From Microbispora sp. NBC_01189 (GTDB lineage: Bacteria > Actinomycetota > Actinomycetes > Streptosporangiales > Streptosporangiaceae), in the NCBI RefSeq assembly GCF_036010665.1, contig NZ_CP108581.1, forward strand, positions 627,501 through 691,500: a stretch of 64,000 nucleotides of DNA, in the 5' to 3' direction. A model generated the notes under the pieces. That model was not told the origin of the DNA and did no database searches. It saw only the letters and a program-made list of their open reading frames with translations. Position numbers and translations under genes: made by a program. Shown one piece after another: positions 729 through 11,190 of the stretch; within the stretch, counting starts at the first letter, position 1; each line of letters begins with the position of its first letter.

Positions 729-1683
729 GTGCTAGCCCCTCGTAGGAGCGATGAGGACCGGCGCCCGGATGATCGCGATCGGGAACCCGCCGACGTTGCG
801 ACCCCTCGTAGGGGCGATGAGGACCTCCGCCGCCAAGGTCCCCGGCCAGTGGGTCATGTTGCGACCCCTCTGAGGACCGGAAGAGATGAGCTGCCTGTAG
901 CGGATGGTGTCGATTTGCGACCCCTCGTAGGGGCGATGAGTACCTCTCCAGGGCGGAGGCCGATGCGAACCAGGCCCTGATGTTGCGACCCCTCGTAGGG
1001 GCGATGAGGACAAGGTCGCCGGCCGCTGGGCCATTACCCTCACCGCGTTGCGACCCCTCGTAGGGGTGATGAGGACCGCCCTTGTGGATAGCCCTCGCTG
1101 TGCGGGATGTGCGTTGCGACCCCTCGTAGGGGCGATGAGGACGTCGTTCATTCGGCAACCAAGGTCGGGCGTCACCTGTTGCGACCCCTCGTAGGGGCGA
1201 TGAGGACGAGCTGTTCGGAGCGGCGGTGACACCAGAAGGAGAACCGTTGCGACCCCTCGTAGGGGCGATGAGGACACCGGCGACCCGAACAAGGCGTACG
1301 CGCCGGGTGGCTGGTTGCGACCCCTCGTAGGGGCGATGAGGACCTTGACCTGCTTGGCCCGGGCCAGCCGAGCCCTCTCCTCGTTGCGACCCCTCGTAGG
1401 GGCGATGAGGACGCTCATACGGGCGCGCGTGCGGGGCCTTCGCTGCGCTCGGTTGCGACCCCTCGTAGGGGCGATGAGGACCGGGACCGCCCCGAAAACG
1501 GCCCCAGGCTCGCGCGTGAGGTTGCGACCCCTCGTAGGGGCGATGAGGACTCCACCCCTGGGGGTGGATCCGGCGTGCTCATTCTCGCGTTGCGACCCCT
1601 CGTAGGGGCGATGAGGACCAGGCGGAGAACCGGGAACGCCGTGCCATGGCCGCGTTGCGACCCCTCGTAGGGGCGATGAGGAC
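729..1683 (-). CRISPR. CRISPR array 1: 15 repeats, 14 spacers, transcribed leftward
   Basis: Fifteen copies of a 30-bp repeat start at 729, 795, 858, 914, 982, 1047, 1113, 1178, 1246, 1314, 1383, 1452, 1521, 1589 and 1654. In crRNA orientation (minus strand) the repeat begins GTCCTCATCGCCCC and ends GAGGGGTCGCAAC, so the predicted 5' handle is GTCGCAAC. Spacers are 33-39 bp and all look different. The leader-proximal copies (1654 back to 1113) are identical. The copy at 1047 has one change and the one at 914 has two. The copy at 858 is only 20 bp because 10 internal bases are gone, and the terminal copy at 729 is degenerate. This decay gradient and the leader at 1684-1788 both set the orientation. 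The spacer at 1551-1588 is itself hairpin-like (TCCACCCC/GGGGTGGA). Confidence 0.97.
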
Positions 1684-1956: not shown

Positions 1957-2685
1957 ATGAGGGTACGGATCGAGGTGGCCACGGCGGCGACCGAGCTCGC
2001 GTGGGCGAATGTGCTGGCTCCCGGGAGGTCCCTGGCGTACGACCTGCTCGCGCGTGAAGCGCCGGACCTGGGCCGGCAGTTCCACGCGGAGGGAGCGGGG
2101 CCGTACGGCATGGTTCCGCTGGGGCACGGTGCGCCGGTCTTCCCCCAGGCACGGCGGCGCCGCGGGGCGTACGCGCTGGGGGGACGCGGCTGGGTGGAGC
2201 TGGGCAGCCCGCTGTTCGAAGTGACCGCCGCGCTGGCGCAGGGGATCAAGCGGCGGGAGCTGCTCGACTGGGGCGGCGCCGCGTTGCGGATCCTCAGCGT
2301 CGAGCCGGTCGGGCCTCCGTCGTACGCGTCGGGGCGTGGACGGTTCCGGACGCTCACCCCGGTGGTCATGAAGGGCACCGGCCGGGAGGAGTCGGGCCAG
2401 CGGACCACCCGGCAGGCGTGGCTGCTGCCGACCGATACCGAATTCCCTGTGTTCTTCCAGCGCAACCTCCGGCGTAAGGCGGAGACGCTGGGGCTCGACC
2501 CGGAGGTTTCACTCACCGAGATCTCCTGGATCGGCGCAAAGCGCTCATTCGCCGTGGGCCAGGGTGCAAAGCCGGGCGCGCCGGTCGAGGTGGAGCTGAC
2601 CGGGCCACCCGAGACGCTGCAGGCCATCTGGAGCTGGGGTCTCGGCCAGGCCAACGCGGCCGGTTTCGGCTGGGTGGCCGCTTGA
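1957..2685 (+). CDS. cas6: Cas6 family pre-crRNA endoribonuclease
   Basis: This 242-aa protein is the first gene of the cas operon. It should cut the array transcripts within the repeat to leave the GTCGCAAC handle. The RAMP-type C-terminus is clear: residues 226-239 contain the glycine-rich loop WGLGQANAAGFG. Histidines at 43 (FHAEG) and 57 (LGHG) are candidate catalytic residues, as general-acid histidine is usual in the N-terminal half of Cas6. The ATG is preceded by a strong ribosome-binding site (AAGGAGGGAA), which fixes the start. The 170 bp between the leader hairpin and this start must hold the operon promoter, but no convincing -10/-35 pair stands out. The stop codon overlaps the TTG start of cas8 (TTGA). 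Confidence 0.93.
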   Translation: MRVRIEVATAATELAWANVLAPGRSLAYDLLAREAPDLGRQFHAEGAGPYGMVPLGHGAPVFPQARRRRGAYALGGRGWVELGSPLFEVTAALAQGIKRRELLDWGGAALRILSVEPVGPPSYASGRGRFRTLTPVVMKGTGREESGQRTTRQAWLLPTDTEFPVFFQRNLRRKAETLGLDPEVSLTEISWIGAKRSFAVGQGAKPGAPVEVELTGPPETLQAIWSWGLGQANAAGFGWVAA

Positions 2686-4109
2686 GCCACGTCGGCCACG
2701 ACGAGGGAAAACGTCCGGTGCTGACCGCGCATCCCTTGCAGCGGGTGGGTGCATACGCGCTGGCGTTCCTCGGCGGGGCACATACACCGGAGCATCTGGT
2801 GCCCTCTGCCTTCGACGACGCCGTCGGCGTCCTCACCGATGACGCCGTCCGCGCGGCGCTCGTACGGGACACCAAGCATGACCAGGGCTTCTGGCTCAAG
2901 GCCAGCATGTCTTTCTTCCCGAACTCGAAGATGAATCATCCGAGCAACGCGAAGAAGGACAAGGAGGAGATCCGCACCACCGTACGGAGCTGGCGTACGT
3001 GCCCCGAGCCCGGCGCTTGGCCGGAAGCGGCGTGTGTGCTGTGTGGGCGGGCGGCGGTCGGTTTCTACGGCAAGAAGGACGTCCCTCTGGCCGAGAGCGA
3101 CGTCTACCGCAACACCACGCCACGCGGCCATCAGGGGTTGGCGCTGTGCTGGCCGTGTCTGTGCTGCTTCTACGCCCTCCCGTACGGCTGCCGTCTCACG
3201 GGCGGGCCCTCCATCGCGCTGCACAGCTGGGACGAGCGGTTCATGGCACGGACCGTGTCGCGCCGGGTCGAGCGAAGCCGGCAGTTCATCGCGCTGGGCA
3301 CGGCCGACCCTCGGGGAGGGTCCGATCGGGAGACGATCGCGCTGCGCGCGTTGCGCGACCACGACGACCGGTTGACGGCGGGCGTTGAGTTGCTGGTCTT
3401 CAGCAACAACAACCGGGGACAGACCCTGGAGATCCAGTCGATGGACCAGCCGCTCGCCGAATGGCTGCGGCTCTCCGCCCGGCTGCCGGCGCGCAGGCGG
3501 GGTTTTCGCGCATTGCTCCGGGCCCATGCCAGGCCGGACCGCCCCGGCATCGTCGGCCTCGCTCGCAACGCCTTCCGATCCACGGAGCTGATCGCCGGAG
3601 CGTGCGCGCGCTACCTGACCCGGCATCTCGACCGCGGCGTGATCAGGAGCGACTCCGCGGACCTGGCCGAGCTGTGCTTCTCCCTAGTGATCGAGGTGAT
3701 GCGGATGAACCTGAACGAGATCGACGAGATCAGGGCCGCCGGAGGGCAGGTGGCCGCGTGGCTGACGGCGGAGAACTCGGCCGGGAAGCTCCGGGAGTTC
3801 AACGCCACTCTGAAGGAGCCCAAGCGCATGCGGCACTGGCTGATGCGCCGCAACCTCGACGCCCTGCTCGACTCCCGCATCTCGACGGAGGGGCCCCTGA
3901 TCACGGAGGAACAGTTCCGGCTGCTCTTCGATCCCGAAGTGGAGCAGGCGTGGTTCCATCGTCAGCTTCTGGTCGTGTCGGTCGTCCAGCGACTCCACGA
4001 GCAGGGCTTCAGACCGGCCGACCGGGCGGAGATCGCGGCGGAGCTGGCGGCCGAGGAGCAGGACCAACCCGAAGATCTCGTGTTCGCGTCGGACGAGAAG
4101 GAGTCGTAG
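2682..4109 (+). CDS. cas8b1: Cas8b1/Cst1-type large subunit (CXXC-CXXC)
   Basis: This is the predicted large subunit of the type I surveillance complex, which in this class recognises the PAM and recruits Cas3. The 475-aa length suits the Cst1 family. The two CXXC zinc-binding pairs that give the family its name are at C118-C121 (CVLCG) and C156-C159 (CWPCLCC), with a further Cys at 170. The start is a TTG that overlaps the cas6 stop, and the next gene begins one base after this stop, so translation is probably coupled. The C-terminal third is acidic and helical, as expected for a subunit that absorbs the small-subunit role. Assignment as Cst1 rather than another Cas8 rests on the CXXC pairs and on the neighbours cas7-cas5-cas3-cas4-cas1-cas2. 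Confidence 0.85.
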   Translation: MSHVGHDEGKRPVLTAHPLQRVGAYALAFLGGAHTPEHLVPSAFDDAVGVLTDDAVRAALVRDTKHDQGFWLKASMSFFPNSKMNHPSNAKKDKEEIRTTVRSWRTCPEPGAWPEAACVLCGRAAVGFYGKKDVPLAESDVYRNTTPRGHQGLALCWPCLCCFYALPYGCRLTGGPSIALHSWDERFMARTVSRRVERSRQFIALGTADPRGGSDRETIALRALRDHDDRLTAGVELLVFSNNNRGQTLEIQSMDQPLAEWLRLSARLPARRRGFRALLRAHARPDRPGIVGLARNAFRSTELIAGACARYLTRHLDRGVIRSDSADLAELCFSLVIEVMRMNLNEIDEIRAAGGQVAAWLTAENSAGKLREFNATLKEPKRMRHWLMRRNLDALLDSRISTEGPLITEEQFRLLFDPEVEQAWFHRQLLVVSVVQRLHEQGFRPADRAEIAAELAAEEQDQPEDLVFASDEKES

Positions 4110-5144
4110 ATGAGCTACCTGGTGGGAAAGGTCGTCCTGGACATCGTCGCGGGGGCGCCGAACAACGGGCAGGGCGAGGACAACGTGGCCCGCGTCAAGC
4201 AGCTCCGCGTCGGGCGCGACGTGCATCCGTACGTGTCGGCGCAGGCATTCCGGCGCTGGCTGCGTGACTCGCTGCCCTCCTCCGAGCCGGCGTCGCCGGT
4301 CATCCGGTCGGGCAGCGGGCAGAAGCAGCAGGCGTACACGAAGGGCCGGCCCGACCTCTACCTGGACGACGACCTGTTCGGCTACATGGTGGCGGTCAAG
4401 AACGACAAGGCGAAAACCTGCCAGCGCGACACGGTGCTCGCCACCGGGACCTTCGTGTCGGTCGCTCCCCGCGCCCCGGAGCGCGACTTCGGCACGATGA
4501 GCCGTGGCTTCTCCGCCGGGGAGAACCCGGTGCTGCACGGCCACGAGTTCTACAGCGCCGAACTCGCCGGTGACGTGCTGCTGGACCTGCCCAGGGTCGG
4601 CGTCTTCGAAATCGACGGCAGCGGGCTGAAGGTCGCCCTGCCCGAGCCCGCCGCCAAGGAGGCGCGCGAGCGGGGCGCGGAGCCGGTCACGTTCCGCGGC
4701 GGCGAGGCCCTGCGACTGCCGGTGGAGGAGCGGCGCCGCCGGGCCGCGCTGCTGCTGCGCACACTGGCCGCCGTACGCGGCGGAGCGAAGCAGTCGATGC
4801 ACTACGGCGACCGCACGCCGGCACTGATCCTGCTCGCGCCGCTCAAGGGCGGGATCAACCCCTTCACCAGGGTGCTGGGGGTCCGGAACGGCCGGGCCAG
4901 GTTCGACTCCGCCGTGCTGCGCGCGGAGATGCAGGCGTGGGCCGACGAGCTGGACGGGCCGGTCATGCTCGGATGGGCGCCCGGATTCCTGGGCGACCAG
5001 CGTGATCAGGCATGTGCCGAACTTGCCGACCTGATCGCCGCCGATGACCTGATCGTCGATCACCCGCGGATCCTGCTCGGGCGGCTGGCGGAGCAGATCG
5101 AGCGAGGCGAGCGGGACACCTGGTTCGAGGACCCGAAGGCATGA
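4110..5144 (+). CDS. cas7: Cas7 (Cst2/DevR family) Cascade backbone subunit
   Basis: A 344-aa RAMP protein that should polymerise along the crRNA spacer. The N-terminus shows the DevR/Cst2 signature: a hydrophobic first strand (MSYLVGKVVLDIV), a glycine/asparagine-rich loop and VSAQAFRRWLRDSL, where the family typically has the S-x-Q-x-(F/L)-(K/R) helix. The central region HGHEFYSAELAGDVLLDLPRVG is also typical of the family. The ATG follows the cas8 TAG immediately, and the upstream GACGAGAAGGAG is a good ribosome-binding site within the cas8 end. The gene overlaps cas5 by 4 nt (ATGA). No frameshift or loss is seen. Confidence 0.9.
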   Translation: MSYLVGKVVLDIVAGAPNNGQGEDNVARVKQLRVGRDVHPYVSAQAFRRWLRDSLPSSEPASPVIRSGSGQKQQAYTKGRPDLYLDDDLFGYMVAVKNDKAKTCQRDTVLATGTFVSVAPRAPERDFGTMSRGFSAGENPVLHGHEFYSAELAGDVLLDLPRVGVFEIDGSGLKVALPEPAAKEARERGAEPVTFRGGEALRLPVEERRRRAALLLRTLAAVRGGAKQSMHYGDRTPALILLAPLKGGINPFTRVLGVRNGRARFDSAVLRAEMQAWADELDGPVMLGWAPGFLGDQRDQACAELADLIAADDLIVDHPRILLGRLAEQIERGERDTWFEDPKA

Positions 5145-5863
5145 CGGCGACTGAATCGCCGGATGACGTGTCGCCCAATGCGCCGCCGACGATCCAGGCG
5201 CTGGAGGTCACCGTCACCGCGCCGCTCGTATCCGTCCGCAACCCCCTGTACGCAGGGGTGCAGGTGGCGTTGCCCTGCCCTCCGCCTTCGACGGTGGCCG
5301 GCATGCTCGCGGCGGCGGCAGGCGGATGGGGCGCTGTCTCCCTGGAGACGCGCTTCGCGATGGCGTTCCACGCCCGCGGCGTGGGGGTCGACCTGGAGAC
5401 CTATCACCCGCTGGACGCTTCAGGGAAAAAGGCCGATCCGACGCCCCGGGAGCGCGGTTTCCTCACCGGCGCGACGCTGACCGTATGGCTCACCGATGAG
5501 ATCGGATCGTGGGAGCGCAGGCTCCGCAGGCCGGTGTGGCCGCTGCGGCTGGGCCGGAGCCAGGACCTGGTCAGAGTGACCACAAGGCGGGTGTCGCTGC
5601 GCCCGGGCCCCGGCCGCCAAGGCTCGGCCCTGCTGCCCGAGGGGATCGCGCCCGTGCTCGCCGGAACGCTGCCCGCCGGGACGTTGCTGCGGCTGCCGAC
5701 CGCGATCTCGCCGGACCGGCAGCGGACCCGCTGGGACGGGTACCACTTCGACGCCTCCGGACGCAGCGACCTGCTGATCGGCGCGGAGTGGTCGGACGAA
5801 CAGGGCCGTGCGGTGGTGCCGCTGCCTCCGGTCCATCCGGCGCGTCTGCCGGCGGTGGTGTGA
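5141..5863 (+). CDS. cas5: Cas5 (type I-B-like) crRNA handle-binding subunit
   Basis: A 240-aa protein with the Cas5 RAMP hallmarks. Strand 1 (LEVTVTAPLVSVRNP) is followed by a tyrosine/proline-rich loop and CPPPSTVAGMLAAAAGGW, corresponding to the family's PPPSTv-G-ml-ga-G motif. In the assembled complex Cas5 caps the 5' handle next to Cas8. The start overlaps the cas7 stop as ATGA. The next gene begins about one base after this stop. Nothing suggests that this gene is damaged, in contrast to the cas3 gene that follows. Confidence 0.88.
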   Translation: MTATESPDDVSPNAPPTIQALEVTVTAPLVSVRNPLYAGVQVALPCPPPSTVAGMLAAAAGGWGAVSLETRFAMAFHARGVGVDLETYHPLDASGKKADPTPRERGFLTGATLTVWLTDEIGSWERRLRRPVWPLRLGRSQDLVRVTTRRVSLRPGPGRQGSALLPEGIAPVLAGTLPAGTLLRLPTAISPDRQRTRWDGYHFDASGRSDLLIGAEWSDEQGRAVVPLPPVHPARLPAVV

Positions 5864-5864
5864 G

Positions 5865-7999
5865 GTGGGGTTGGGTGACCTGCTCGCCAAGAGCGACCCG
5901 CCGGAGCGGCTGACCGCTCACCTCGCGGCCACCCTGGAGGGCGCCGTCGCGTTGCGCCGCCGGGTCGGAGAGATCGCCGTGACGGCTCGGGTCGCCGAAG
6001 GGACGTTCTGGCCGGTGGCCTGTCTTGCCGCGCTCTGCCATGACGCCGGGAAGATTCCGTACGGGTTCCAGGCCATGCTCAGGGGCCGCATCAGATCCTG
6101 GGGTGAACGGCACGAGGTGGTGTCGCTGGGCTTCCTGCCGGGCCTGATCCCCGACGAGCGTCTCCTCATATGGGTGGCCACCGGCGTCGCCACCCATCAT
6201 CGCGCCCTCGACGGCGGACCCAGGCCACTTGTCCAGGCGTACGGCGGCGCGAGCGAGCAGGAGTGGCGCGACCGCTTCGAGCCGGTTCCCGGCGAGGCCG
6301 CCGGTGAGCTGCGCGAGTGGCTCGACGAGACGGCGCGGCGGGCGGGACTGCCGACGACGCCCTGCCCCGATGGGCCATTGGACGTCATCGCGAGCGCGCG
6401 GCGGGTCTTCGACCTGCTGCTCGACCACTGGGAGATGCCAACGTCAGCGGACGAGGGGCTGACGGCGGTGCTGCTCCAGGGCGCGGTGACACTGGCCGAC
6501 CATGTCTCCTCCGCGCACGGCACGCTGCACGCGCACCAACCGCTGGGGGCGGACTTCCGGCCGCTGCTGGAGAAGGCGTTCGCCAACCGTGGCCGGAGCC
6601 TGCGCCCGCACCAGACCGGCGCGGCGGAGATCGACGGGCACCTCCTCTTGCGTGCCCCGACCGGCTCGGGGAAGACCGAGGCGGGCCTGCTGTGGGCGGC
6701 GGCGCAGGCCACGGCGATCGCCGAGGCGACCGGTGGCGTGCCGAGGGTCTTCTTCACCCTCCCCTATCTCGCCTCGATCAACGCTATGGCCGTACGGCTG
6801 GGCACGCTGCTGGGCGACGAGACGCTGGTGGGGGTGATGCACTCCCGGGCCGCCTCCTACCATCTGGCCGCCGCCATCTGCCCGGAAGACGGCGAGGACG
6901 CACAGGCCGACGCCGCGCGGAAGGCCGTCTCCCGGGCGGCGGCGACCCGGCTGTTCCGGGAGACCGTGCGGGTCGGCACGCCGTACCAGATCCTGCGTGG
7001 CGTGCTGGCCGGACCAGCCCACGCGGCGACGCTCATCGACGCCGCGAACTCGGTGTTCGTGCTGGACGAACTGCACGCCTACGACCCCCGGCGGCTCGGA
7101 TACATCCTGGCGACGGCGGGTCTGTGGGAGCGGCTGGGCGGGCGCGTCGCCGTGCTTTCCGCCACGCTCCCGGACGCCCTGGCCCGCCTCTTCAGAGACA
7201 CGCTTCGACGGAACGTCCATCTGGTCGAGGCGTCCGCGGCGGGTGCGCCGCGACGGCACCGGTTGGCGCTGCGGGACCGTCATCTGACCGACCCCGACTC
7301 GGTCGACGAGATACGCGGCAGGCTGGCACGTGGCGAGTCCCTCAAGGGAGGAGCGGTCCATCCGGCGGAAGCGCGAGTGCAGCAGGTAGGCGGTCTCGGT
7401 CTCCGGTGCGAGGCCGGATCGCCGAACGGCCGCCCGCCGATGTCGTCGTGCATCAGGCGGCGTTCGCTCCGAGGCGGGGACAGGGCGAGGACTACGCCGA
7501 CGGCGTCTATCCACGGGAGCCGGTAGAGGCGGGCTTGGTCATCCTGGGCCGCCATGACGGCGCGGTGGTCGACGAGGGGGAGGCGAGACTCTGGCTCGAC
7601 GAGGTGTACGGCACCGACTGGGGCCAGGAGTGGTACGACGAGGTGCTCCAGCACCGGACGGTTTTCACTGACGCCTTCTTGGGCTTCGCGCATCCGTTCA
7701 GCAGCCGGGACGATCTCGGTGAGCGATTCGACGAACTGTTCGACGGGACGGAGGCGGTGCTGTCGAGCGATCGTGACGCCTACGAGGCGAGTCTCGGCCA
7801 GGTGCCTGGCGTCAGGGCGGCCGGGCGTCTGCTCGCCGAGCGCTTCCTGATTCCGATGCCGTTCTGGGCCGCGCCACTGACGACCTGGGAGAAGCGCCTC
7901 GGGGTGCGGATCGTGGAGGCCGACTACGACGAGCGGCTCGGCCTCGGCGAGATCCGCGGGCCGGCCGCCCGTGAGTATCAGGCGGGTGAGGTGTTGTGA
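5865..7999 (+). pseudogene. cas3: cas3 nuclease-helicase, disrupted by deletion plus micro-inversion
   Basis: Cas3 should nick and unwind DNA marked by Cascade. Residues 1-492 read normally from a GTG at 5865 (a TTG at 5871 is an alternative). They contain the HD domain (H59-D60 in CHDAGK; HH in VATHHRA), Walker A (APTGSGKT, 264-271), the DELH box (401-404) and LSATLP (431-436). After RGES (7340) the frame enters foreign sequence and ends at 7526. Bases 7341 to about 7406 encode TETAYLLHSRFRRMDR on the minus strand, a helicase motif that should be on the plus strand. From about 7409 the plus strand resumes in another frame with RGRIAERPPADVVVH (motif VI region) and the normal C-terminus up to 7999. 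The segments that should flank the inverted piece, including the TQVVE-type motif V, are absent. Two separate polypeptides could still be made, but no intact Cas3. Confidence 0.85.
7341..7408 (-). other. Inverted cas3 micro-fragment
   Basis: On the minus strand this stretch reads TETAYLLHSRFRRMDRSSLE, the conserved LHSRF...DR element of the second RecA domain in Cas3. It therefore lies in reverse orientation inside the gene. The left junction is GAGTCC|CTCAAGGG, within a short palindromic stretch, and the right junction falls between about 7404 and 7409. No long flanking inverted repeats or recombinase gene are present. Flipping the piece back would not restore the gene, because the adjoining sequence on both sides is missing. 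Confidence 0.75.
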
Positions 8000-8493
8000 T
8001 CGGCCCCGAGGACGTCGGCGGCGTCCACGTCAAGTACCTCTACCACTGCCGACGCCAGTTGTGGCTCTACGCACGGGGGATGCGCCCCGAGCAGCTCAGC
8101 GCCACCGTTCAGTTGGGCGAGGCGGTGCACGAGACCTCCTACACCCGAAGCTCTCCGGTCGACCTGGGCGCGGCGAAGCTGGACCACCTCGACGGTGCCG
8201 CCTGGGTGCACGAGGTCAAGTCGTCGTCGCGGCCGAGCCGGGCCGACGAGGCGCAGGCCATGCACTACTGCTACCGACTGCGGGCCGTCGGCGTGGACGC
8301 GCAGGGCGGGATCCTCCATTACCCCAAGACCCGTCGCACCAAGCGCCTGCCGTACACGACACAAGCGGCGGAGCAGGCGGAGGCCGACATCGCCGAAGTG
8401 CTGGCCGTGGTGTCCGCGCCCGATTCACCCCCACTGCTCGCCCGGTCCGCCTGCCGAGGCTGCTCCTACGCCGACTACTGCTGGAACGAATAG
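7996..8493 (+). CDS. cas4: Cas4 RecB-like nuclease for spacer processing
   Basis: A 165-aa protein of the PD-(D/E)XK Cas4 family, which trims prespacers and selects PAM and orientation with Cas1-Cas2. Visible features are the iron-sulfur cysteines C18 (YLYHCRRQLW) and C153, C156 and C162 (CRGCSYADYC), the nuclease residues D63, E73 and K75 (HEVKSSS), and the downstream motif QAMHYCYRL. The start is a GTG overlapping the cas3 TGA (GTGA). The gene and its catalytic residues are intact although cas3 just upstream is damaged. cas1 begins immediately after the stop. Confidence 0.92.
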   Translation: MIGPEDVGGVHVKYLYHCRRQLWLYARGMRPEQLSATVQLGEAVHETSYTRSSPVDLGAAKLDHLDGAAWVHEVKSSSRPSRADEAQAMHYCYRLRAVGVDAQGGILHYPKTRRTKRLPYTTQAAEQAEADIAEVLAVVSAPDSPPLLARSACRGCSYADYCWNE

Positions 8494-9474
8494 ATGCCAA
8501 CCGCCGCCCGTACCTATTGGCTCACGACGTCCTGCCGGATCCGCCGCAAAGATCAGTCTCTACGGATCGAACGGCCCGAGGGGGCGCCGGTCCACATTCC
8601 GGTGACCGACGTGCGCGACATCGTCGCCTGCGAGGCCGTCGATCTCAACACATCCGTGATCAGCCTGCTCAACCAGCACCGGATCAACGTCCACTTCCTC
8701 AGCCACTACGGGGACTACGCCGGTTCGCTGCTGACCGCGGACACCAGCGTCTCCGGGCAGACGGTGATCGCCCAGGTGGGGCTGGCCGCCGATCAGACGG
8801 CCTCCCTGGAGATCGCCCGGGCCATCGTCGCCAGCACCGCGGTGAACGTACGCCGGGTCGTCGACCGCAGGCTCCTAAACCGGCCGATGGCCGTCCTCGA
8901 AGCCTCGATCGCCGATGCCACCACACGAGAGCAACTCATGGGCGCGGAAGGCACCTTCCGCCGCTCGGCCTGGGCCGTGCTGGACACCCGCCTCCCGGAC
9001 TGGCTCCGGCTCGACGGGCGCAGCCGCAGGCCTCCGCGCAACGCGGGCAACGCCTTCATCAGCTATGTGAACGGGATCATCTACGCGCGGATGCTCTCGG
9101 CGATAAGACTGACACCGTTGCACACGGGCGTGGCCTTCCTGCACAGCACGATGGAACGCCAGCGCCACTCCCTGGTGCTGGACCTCGCGGAGGTGTTCAA
9201 GCCGCTCTTCGCCGAGCGGCTGCTCCTCCGGCTCGCCGGGCGGGGTCAACTCAAGCCCGCTCATTTCGAGACCGACGTCAACCAGGCGATGCTGAGCGAG
9301 ACGGGCAGGAAGCTGATCGTCCAGACCGTCAGGGACGAACTGGCCGTGACGATTCAGCACCGGTCTCTCGGCCGCAACGTCGCCTACGACGAGCTGCTGT
9401 ATCTGGAGGCGCTCCAGCTCACCCGCAGATGCCTGGAGGGCACGCCGTACAAGCCGTTCCGGATCTGGTGGTGA
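8494..9474 (+). CDS. cas1: Cas1 integrase
   Basis: A 326-aa Cas1, the metal-dependent integrase that inserts spacers at the leader-repeat junction. The catalytic set is present: E152 (MGAEGTFRR), H217 (VAFLHSTMERQRHSL) and D230/E233 (LVLDLAEVFKP). The N-terminal beta domain and C-terminal helical domain are complete, and the length is normal. The ATG abuts the cas4 stop codon. With intact cas4 and cas2, and identical leader-proximal repeats in both arrays, adaptation looks competent. Confidence 0.96.
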   Translation: MPTAARTYWLTTSCRIRRKDQSLRIERPEGAPVHIPVTDVRDIVACEAVDLNTSVISLLNQHRINVHFLSHYGDYAGSLLTADTSVSGQTVIAQVGLAADQTASLEIARAIVASTAVNVRRVVDRRLLNRPMAVLEASIADATTREQLMGAEGTFRRSAWAVLDTRLPDWLRLDGRSRRPPRNAGNAFISYVNGIIYARMLSAIRLTPLHTGVAFLHSTMERQRHSLVLDLAEVFKPLFAERLLLRLAGRGQLKPAHFETDVNQAMLSETGRKLIVQTVRDELAVTIQHRSLGRNVAYDELLYLEALQLTRRCLEGTPYKPFRIWW

Positions 9475-9480
9475 GGCGAC

Positions 9481-9744
9481 GTGTACGTGGTCGTGGTCTA
9501 CGACACGCTGGCGAAGCGCAACGCCGCCATCCTGCGGCTGTGCCGGCAGTATCTCCACCACGTGCAGCGCAGCGTGTTCGAGGGAGCGCTGAGCCCGGCA
9601 CAGCTCAAGAGATTCCGCCACCGAGTCGAAGAGGTGATCGACCAGTCGTACGACAGCGTTCTCGTCTTCACCTTCCCACCCGGCACCTCCCCCGAACGCC
9701 ACGAATGGGGCGTCGCCCAGCCCGCCCCCACGGACATCCTGTGA
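9481..9744 (+). CDS. cas2: Cas2 adaptation subunit
   Basis: An 87-aa ferredoxin-fold protein that bridges two Cas1 dimers. The N-terminal MYVVVVYD carries the conserved aspartate (D8). The body, with HVQRSVFEGALS and a basic helix, follows the family. The start is a GTG six bases after the cas1 stop, with a GGTGAGGC Shine-Dalgarno-like stretch. This is the last gene of the operon. The array 2 leader begins right after it and no terminator-like hairpin separates them, so operon read-through into array 2 is possible. Confidence 0.95.
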   Translation: MYVVVVYDTLAKRNAAILRLCRQYLHHVQRSVFEGALSPAQLKRFRHRVEEVIDQSYDSVLVFTFPPGTSPERHEWGVAQPAPTDIL

Positions 9745-9871: not shown

Positions 9872-11190
9872 GTCCTCATCGCCCCTACGAGGGGTCGCAA
9901 CCCGTTCGGGCCGGTCTTGGTGAAGCAGTGGTGACCAGGTCCTCATCGCCCCTACGAGGGGTCGCAACAACGAGTGCGAGGCGGTCAAGGGGGGTTCCTT
10001 CCAGTCCTCATCGCCCCTACGAGGGGTCGCAACTGCAGCGGTGCGGGTTCCTGCCGCTGGCGATCGTGCTGTCCTCATCGCCCCTACGAGGGGTCGCAAC
10101 CCCCGTCCAATCCGTTATCGGGGACTCCGTCCCCTTCGGTCCTCATCGCCCCTACGAGGGGTCGCAACCGTTGCGCGCTACGGGCATGTCACTTGCCCAT
10201 CGCTGCCCGTCCTCATCGCCCCTACGAGGGGTCGCAACTTGGACATGTGGCGGAGGTGGCGGACGGTGGCGGTGGTCCTCATCGCCCCTACGAGGGGTCG
10301 CAACCTTCAGGACCCCATACAGAATCCACCCCGCAACGCTCAGGTCCTCATCACCCCTACGAGGGGTCGCAACTGCTCGGCCGTCTCGACAGTGTCGTTA
10401 CCAAGCGCGCGCGTCCTCATCGCCCCTAAGAGGGGTCGCAACGTGTGCTGCCGCCGACAGACCGACCCGACGCCGAGTCCTCATCACCCCTACGAGGGAT
10501 CGCAACGTCTTGCACTCCAGGCCGCCGACGAGCCGGCCGCCCTGGTCCTCATCGCCCCTACGAGGGGTCGCAACCTGGACAAGGCCGGGGCCATCCTGGC
10601 GGAGTTCGCGTCCTCATCGCCCCTACGAGGGGTCGCAACTGTAGGGAGCACACGGCGACCAGCCGGGCCAGCAGGGTCCTCATCACCCACGAGGGGTCGC
10701 AACCAGGTCAGGACAACGCCGCCCTGGTCCCACGCCCAGAGTCCTCATCACCCCTACGAGGGGTCGCAACTCCTCGACCAGCGGCGGCGGTGTCACGATA
10801 CGGCTCACGTCCTCATCGCCCCTACCAGGGAGGGGCTTCAGGGGTCGCAACAGGTTCCCTGCTGGCTGGTCTGCGTCACGAGGGGGGTCCTCATCGCCCC
10901 TACGAGGGGTCGCAACGCGCGGCCGGTGGTCTCAAGCAGCGCGTGAGCGTATCGTCCTCATCGCCCCTACGAGTGGTCGCAACATCGGGCTCGTGCGGGA
11001 CTGCTCGGCGTAGTCGGCATCCTCATCTTCCCTACGAGGGGTCGCCACTCGCCGACGGACAGTTCGACCTTCCAGCCGTTGTTAACCAGTCCTCATTCAT
11101 CATCCCTACGAGGGGTCGCAACGTGTAGATCCCGACGGTGTTGTCGCTGAGGTTCCGGTCCTCATCTCGCCCTTCAAAGGGGGCCTCAAC
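9872..11190 (+). CRISPR. CRISPR array 2: 20 repeats, 19 spacers, transcribed rightward
   Basis: Repeats of the same 30-bp consensus as array 1, in the opposite genomic orientation, start at 9872, 9939, 10004, 10071, 10139, 10209, 10275, 10344, 10413, 10477, 10545, 10610, 10676, 10741, 10809, 10887, 10954, 11019, 11089 and 11158. Spacers are 34-40 bp. The first seven repeats are identical. From 10344 on, point changes appear. The copy at 10676 is 28 bp, the copy at 10809 carries about 13 extra bases (43 bp), the copy at 11089 is 34 bp, and the last one at 11158 is barely recognisable. This places the old end on the right and the leader at 9767-9871. Confidence 0.97.

What the first reader, a model, noticed from the sequence alone, without database searches (positions are those of the whole stretch)
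7335..7410. cas3 broken by a deletion-inversion-deletion with a ~66-bp helicase fragment on the wrong strand
The plus strand reads normal Cas3 up to RGES (7340). The next ~66 bp encode the conserved Cas3 element LLHSRFRRMDRSSLE on the minus strand. The plus strand then resumes in a different frame at RGRIAERPPADVVVH. Sequence that should lie on both sides of the inverted piece (the strand before LLHSRF, and motif V after it) is missing. One simple frameshift cannot explain this; a complex template-switch-like event can. The HD nuclease and first RecA domain stay in frame.
Basis: partly seen in the sequence, partly recalled or inferred. Interest (0 to 1): 0.7.

Follow-up and report, generated by a model that had tools for sequence, protein, structure and literature searches.

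The report
Recently broken cas3 defence gene
In this bacterium the CRISPR defence gene cas3 has been broken by a small rearrangement that threw away two stretches and put the piece between them back the wrong way round, so this defence can probably no longer cut its targets; the breakage looks real and neat, but gene breakage of this general kind is already known.

Summary
In a type I-B cas operon, cas3 reads normally to 7340. The next 72 bp (7341-7412) are Cas3 sequence on the opposite strand. Normal Cas3 resumes in another frame at 7414/7415. Twelve intact relatives agree on what is gone: 17 codons before the inverted piece (motif IV region) and 53 after it (motifs V and VI). A whole-genome search with an intact relative found the + and - pieces independently. 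The inverted piece matches each of the 12 relatives better than any of 1000 shuffles.

Best reading: cas3 is a recent pseudogene made in one deletion-inversion-deletion step, so type I-B interference is probably lost. The remaining fragments show no extra decay. The seven other cas genes look full length, and a separate type I-E operon with an open cas3 is present. The cause is a template switch (order 1-3-2-4) or end-joining; no homology is visible at the joints, and Ku and LigD-type genes are present, so the two cannot be separated. The three spacers judged newest do not match the genome elsewhere. Reads or a sister strain are needed to exclude an assembly error.

The parts
5865..7340 (+). 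cas3 5' fragment: HD nuclease plus RecA1 (GSGKT, DELH, SATLP, called motifs I-III from recall), in frame
   Evidence: On the translation of 5862-7340: TIGR01596 cas3_HD over its cut-off, TIGR01587 cas3_core only to profile position 181 of 358 and below its cut-off; DEAD over, Cas3_HD of Pfam just below cut-off; 70-78% identity to L003-L015. Start GTG 5865 chosen by comparison with the L003 start.
7341..7412 (-). inverted 72-bp cas3 piece (LAPETETAYLLHSRFRRMDRSSLE on the - strand)
7413..7414 (.). junction bases GC: the C can be native (most relatives have AAC before CGG), the G fits neither side (filler or later substitution)
7415..7999 (+). cas3 3' fragment (end of RecA2 and C-terminal part), open to the normal stop but in another frame
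   Evidence: 77% identity to M. glauca Cas3, 7412-7996; 194 codons, no stop; no Pfam or NCBIfam match for 7400-7996
5865..7526 (+). predicted truncated product: 492 native residues plus 61 off-frame residues, then stop
1957..2685 (+). cas6, full length
   Evidence: PF01881 over cut-off; TIGR01877 below cut-off; 81% to L003 over 1-242
2682..4109 (+). cas8 candidate (weak Cas_CXXC_CXXC match)
   Evidence: E 0.0057, below the curated cut-off; 76% to L003 over 14-468 of 475
4110..5144 (+). cas7 (Cst2/DevR, type I-B)
   Evidence: TIGR02585 E 3e-55
5141..5863 (+). cas5 (type I-B like)
   Evidence: TIGR01895 E 8e-16, below its curated cut-off; TIGR02593 above its cut-off
7996..8493 (+). cas4, full length
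   Evidence: PF01930 E 1.5e-41; 86% to L003
8494..9474 (+). cas1b, full length
   Evidence: TIGR03641 E 4e-92, over cut-off; 85% to L003
9481..9744 (+). cas2, full length
   Evidence: PF09827 E 8e-18; 89% to L003 over 8-87 of 87
729..1683 (-). CRISPR array A1; leader side inferred at 1683 (perfect repeats there)
9872..11122 (+). CRISPR array A2; leader side inferred at 9872 (perfect repeats there)

Best explanation
[quoted passage not shown] One local event replaced about 282 bp of the RecA2 helicase domain by 74 bp: sequence from point 1 (after 7340) to point 4 (7414/7415) was lost, except for a 72-bp internal piece that came back as its reverse complement. That removes motif IV, V and VI sequence and shifts the frame, so the gene now gives at most an HD+RecA1 fragment (553 aa, 61 of them off-frame). 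The helicase motor needed to pull DNA into the nuclease is gone, so type I-B interference should be off, while the genes for crRNA processing, Cascade and Cas1-Cas2-Cas4 adaptation stay intact. SHOWN by sequence: the pieces, their order and orientation, what is missing against relatives, and the open frames of the neighbours. INFERRED: that it happened in one step, most likely an inter-strand template switch of order 1-3-2-4 during replication (about 0.55), otherwise Ku/LigD end-joining of a twice-broken stretch (about 0.35); and that interference is lost.
For: Two of the pieces (+ and -) recovered by a search of the whole own genome with a relative's C-terminal half; minus-strand match in 12 of 12 relatives; boundary mapping against 12 relatives; all 30 fetched relatives L003-L032 have motif I and motif VI in one long stop-free frame (23, the other 7, with variant P-loops; L008 is the same cas3 sequence as L003); Pfam Cas3-like_C_2 at 491-588 in the intact M. 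glauca protein and not found in the window fragments 5862-7340 and 7400-7996 at E <= 0.01; fragments not decayed: mean identity to relatives 0.742 (5' part) and 0.731 (3' part), pN/pS 0.335 and 0.333, inside the range of the 12 intact sequences (0.303-0.406 and 0.294-0.433), no stop in either; the seven other cas genes match L003 at 74-89%.
Against: No raw reads and no sister-strain assembly could be seen; of 15 genomes of the genus (own included) only this one has this cas3 at E <= 1e-20. No microhomology is visible at either joint and one base is unexplained, which a template switch does not need but end-joining readily gives. PMC7954356 (passage) capped deletions per event at 50 and found large deletions around a short switched fragment unconvincing under its model; about 210 bp are lost here, though the 72-bp fragment itself is well supported. 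That interference is lost was not measured; an HD+RecA1 fragment could keep some nuclease activity, and the type I-E Cas3 could in principle act in trans.
Confidence: 0.82

Rival explanations
1. Same end product, made by Ku/LigD non-homologous end-joining: two close double-strand breaks, trimming on each side, and the surviving 72-bp fragment religated backwards.
For: Ku (PF02735 E 2.5e-58; TIGR02772 E 4e-102) and three LigD-type polymerase matches, two over the curated cut-off, one of them about 300 bp from the Ku match on the other strand; joints without visible microhomology and with one filler base.
Against: Needs two breaks within about 280 bp plus capture of a 72-bp fragment; a template switch needs one event.
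Confidence: 0.33
2. Assembly or sequencing artefact; the real cas3 is intact.
For: No reads or second assembly could be inspected.
Against: Genome is a single 7.37-Mb contig, completeness 100 and contamination 0.04 by the tool's figures; a 72-bp inversion with about 208 bp net loss and sharp edges is not a usual consensus error (judgement); no defect was seen in the seven other cas genes.
Confidence: 0.07
3. Reversible switch: a recombinase-flipped segment that turns cas3 on and off.
For: A short inverted segment inside a gene. One imperfect inverted repeat (7304-7323 / 7429-7448, 15 of 20 complementary) lies 17 and 16 bases outside the two edges.
Against: Flipping between those arms would also invert the native bases next to the piece, which are in normal orientation; arms this good are common (10 of 60 shuffles and 34 of 60 random window stretches hold at least one such pair). 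No repeat sits at the edges themselves, and sequence on both sides is lost, so flipping back could not give a working gene; the lost part has no other match in the genome than a 38%-identical type I-E Cas3.
Confidence: 0.01
4. The break was selected because the system attacked its own genome (self-targeting spacer).
For: A selective reason often proposed for cas gene loss (recalled, not taken from a paper read here).
Against: The spacer judged newest in each of three arrays matches nowhere else in the genome with up to 3 mismatches. Of 53 putative spacers, none has more than 20 identical aligned bases outside the arrays in the window and the own-genome stretches held (three own-genome rows with 19 or more: two rows of one place near Ku, one window place). 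The other 50 were not searched against the whole genome.
Confidence: 0.1

Closest known systems
Short-range template switch, order 1-3-2-4 (four-point model of Loytynoja and Goldman, as described in PMC7954356; passages seen)
   Same: A larger region between points 1 and 4 is replaced by the shorter reverse complement of the stretch between 3 and 2; point 2 lies ahead of point 1, so the switch would be inter-strand.
Intact type I-B Cas3 of Microtetraspora glauca (L003, BBYL01000030.1)
   Same: 75% identity over the first 492 residues, 77% in the C-terminal part; same operon order.
   Different: 778-aa open frame with the RecA2 match (Cas3-like_C_2) complete.
Loss of CRISPR-Cas function by mutation or deletion of the locus (PMC3784566, abstract and outline seen)
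   Same: Defective CRISPR-Cas loci arise in cells, and the loss can carry little or no cost in vitro.
   Different: That work is on Staphylococcus epidermidis RP62a and plasmid uptake; here one rearranged gene in a genome with a second type I system.

Membership tests
[quoted passage not shown]
   the type-specific Cas5 model and NCBIfam's Cas6 and Cas4 models are below their curated cut-offs, Cas8 only weakly matched
[quoted passage not shown]
   RecA2 motif IV-VI sequence lost, frame shifted
Short-range template switch, 1-3-2-4 | Three ordered pieces L-1, reverse complement of 3-2, 4-R, all from the same locus | tested here: met
Short-range template switch, 1-3-2-4 | Made by a polymerase switch in one replication event | not testable with these tools
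   end-joining leaves the same product; needs the parent strain or mutants
Ku/LigD non-homologous end-joining product | Ku and LigD-type genes in the genome | tested here: met
   (LigD polymerase domain only; ligase domain not searched)
Ku/LigD non-homologous end-joining product | Joints with little or no homology, small additions | tested here: inconclusive
   no visible homology and one unexplained base, but judged against relatives at about 75% identity, not the ancestor
Invertible (phase-variable) element | Inverted repeats at both edges and lossless flipping | tested here: not met

The most novel reading that the evidence does not exclude
The strain has recently uncoupled its type I-B system: targeting by Cascade and spacer uptake stay while DNA cutting is lost, so the I-B complex now only binds or records, alongside a second type I-E system that does the cutting.
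Probability: 0.05. Interest if true: 0.6.

Novelty: new member of a known kind. Interest (0 to 1): 0.27.

Why it matters
It is a clean natural example, in a bacterium that also has end-joining genes, of what looks like one small event deleting, inverting and deleting again inside a coding gene. A gene finder would report only a truncated Cas3, and a simple frameshift call would misread it. It also means that a genome counted as carrying two type I systems probably has one that can cut. Beyond that it is ordinary gene loss.

Tried and rejected
Simple frameshift: rejected, since about 210 bp are missing and one piece is on the other strand. Invertible element: rejected; the one imperfect inverted repeat that lies 16-17 bases outside the edges is no better than chance. 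Donor copy elsewhere in the genome: the only other match to the lost part at E <= 1 is a 38%-identical Cas3 of a type I-E operon. Old, decaying pseudogene: not supported. In one search the protein match of 8 of 12 relatives runs past 7341 into the antisense of native sequence (to 7272-7284) across a gap; I take this as chance, because that stretch is native cas3 on the + strand. Papers: the listings (5 of 5 papers shown; 12 of 416 shown; 15 of 24 shown) on template switch, inversion and flanking deletions showed me no bacterial gene broken in this way; others (5 of 5; 5 of 5) on broken cas3 likewise. These are titles and abstract starts, so that is not proof of absence. No fold prediction was run.

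Full report
What is there. The window holds a CRISPR-Cas operon in the order cas6, cas8 candidate, cas7, cas5, cas3, cas4, cas1, cas2 (1957-9744), with one array on each side (729-1683 on the - strand, 9872-11122 on the + strand). Cas7 and Cas1 models name it type I-B; the cas8 candidate has only a weak match. A third array with the same repeat lies at C1:610275-611624.

The break. On the + strand Cas3 reads normally to RLARGES, ending at 7340. The - strand from 7412 down to 7341 reads LAPETETAYLLHSRFRRMDRSSLE. The + strand resumes normal Cas3 (RIAERPPADVVVH) from 7415, in another frame. Against 12 intact relatives (L003-L007, L009-L015; L008 dropped because its cas3 is the same sequence as L003, L016-L020 dropped as more distant, L021-L032 not put into this alignment), identity stops at 7340 on the left, holds across 72 bp in inverted orientation, and begins again at 7414/7415. 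Relatives have 17 codons (VLVVANNVADAQ..LFAE) between the left edge and the piece, and 53 codons between the piece and the right edge, including VATQVVEVSLDVDFD and QRFGRVN. I call these motifs IV, V and VI from recall. Nine of the 12 relatives hold 282 bp here, two 288 and one 294, where the window holds 74.

Is it more than chance? tblastn of the relatives' 94-98-residue segments against the 64-kb window gave the minus-strand hit in 12 of 12 (E from 9e-10 to 2e-5); all other hits in the window had E of 0.010 or more. In 8 of 12 the hit ran on across a gap into the antisense of native sequence, which I take as chance; in the three that stop at 7341 E is 4e-8, 5e-7 and 2e-5. At DNA level the piece matches the 12 relatives at 45-59 of 72 positions in the inverted orientation, 29-33 in the other, and at most 36-40 in 1000 two-base-block shuffles per relative. 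A search of the whole genome with the C-terminal half of M. glauca Cas3, not told where to look, returned the + piece at window 7412-7996 (77%) and the - piece at 7335-7415 (67%, E 5e-5), besides a type I-E Cas3 and one weak hit.

What it does to the protein. The product from GTG 5865 would be 553 residues: 492 native and 61 off-frame, ending at 7526. HD and RecA1 remain. Pfam's Cas3-like_C_2, which covers 491-588 of the intact M. glauca protein, was not found in either fragment at E <= 0.01. Solved Cas3 chains such as 4q2c and 4qqw align with the M. glauca protein over this part. Without RecA2 a Cas3 motor should not work; this follows from what is known of the helicase family and was not tested. 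The 3' fragment is open to the normal stop; start codons in its frame exist from 7448 on, but there is no evidence that it is translated.

Age. The two fragments are as similar to relatives as intact Cas3 proteins are to each other: mean identity 0.742 and 0.731 against 0.723 and 0.704 among 66 pairs of relatives; pN/pS 0.335 and 0.333, within the range of the 12 others; no stop codon. This fits a recent event, though a few hundred codons give little power. The seven other cas genes match M. glauca at 74-89% over nearly their whole length.

Context. All 30 fetched relatives (L003-L032) have motif I and motif VI in one long open frame (seven needed a looser pattern for the P-loop). In the family sample 44 of 297 genomes have a match to the 5' part at E of 1e-30 or better, this genome included, and loci were held for 29 of the other 43. 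In the genus only 1 of 15 has it at E of 1e-20 or better, this one. So no sister allele was available. The genome also carries a type I-E operon (cas3, cse1, cse2, cas7, cas5, cas6, cas1) at C1:3,970,168-3,979,083 with an open Cas3 of 1004 codons.

How it arose. [quoted passage not shown] The same authors capped deletions at 50 per event and did not find large ones convincing under their model, which counts somewhat against filing this one there. The same product can come from end-joining: Ku and LigD-type genes are present. Neither joint shows homology and base 7413 fits neither side, but relatives at about 75% identity cannot show the ancestral bases. One imperfect inverted repeat lies 16-17 bases outside the edges (7304-7323 / 7429-7448); it has 15 of 20 complementary bases, and 10 of 60 shuffles and 34 of 60 random window stretches hold at least one such pair, so I give it no weight. 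I put about 0.55 on the switch, 0.35 on end-joining, 0.1 on the rest, an assembly error included.

Why it was kept. Chance loss, or relaxed need beside the type I-E system, is enough; this is inference. [quoted passage not shown] A review of actinomycete CRISPR-Cas (PMC12231136, passages only) names an active type I-B system in Saccharopolyspora spinosa, so such systems can work in actinomycetes.

Verdict.

Noticed in passing
G000:C1:3,970,168-3,979,083 (L039:6169-15084): A second CRISPR-Cas system, type I-E, with cas3, cse1, cse2, cas7, cas5, cas6 and cas1 open reading frames; its arrays and cas2 were not looked at.
   Followed up: partly
G000:C1:610275-611624 (L038): A third array with the same I-B repeat about 16 kb before the window; no cas gene was looked for beside it.
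   Followed up: partly
window 10809-10886 and 858-887: Two rearranged repeats: one in array A2 with about a dozen extra bases inside it, and one in array A1 whose first half does not match; both are in the half of the array away from the inferred leader.
   Followed up: no
window 7272-7340, - strand: The antisense of native cas3 next to the left joint aligns, across a gap, with the stretch after the piece in 8 of 12 relatives; taken as chance.
   Followed up: no
window 7304-7323 and 7429-7448: An imperfect inverted repeat nearly symmetrical about the inverted piece; a control shows such pairs are common.
   Followed up: yes
G000 and 14 other genomes of the genus: Only this genome of the 15 has this type I-B cas3, which suggests patchy inheritance of the system in the genus.
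   Followed up: no
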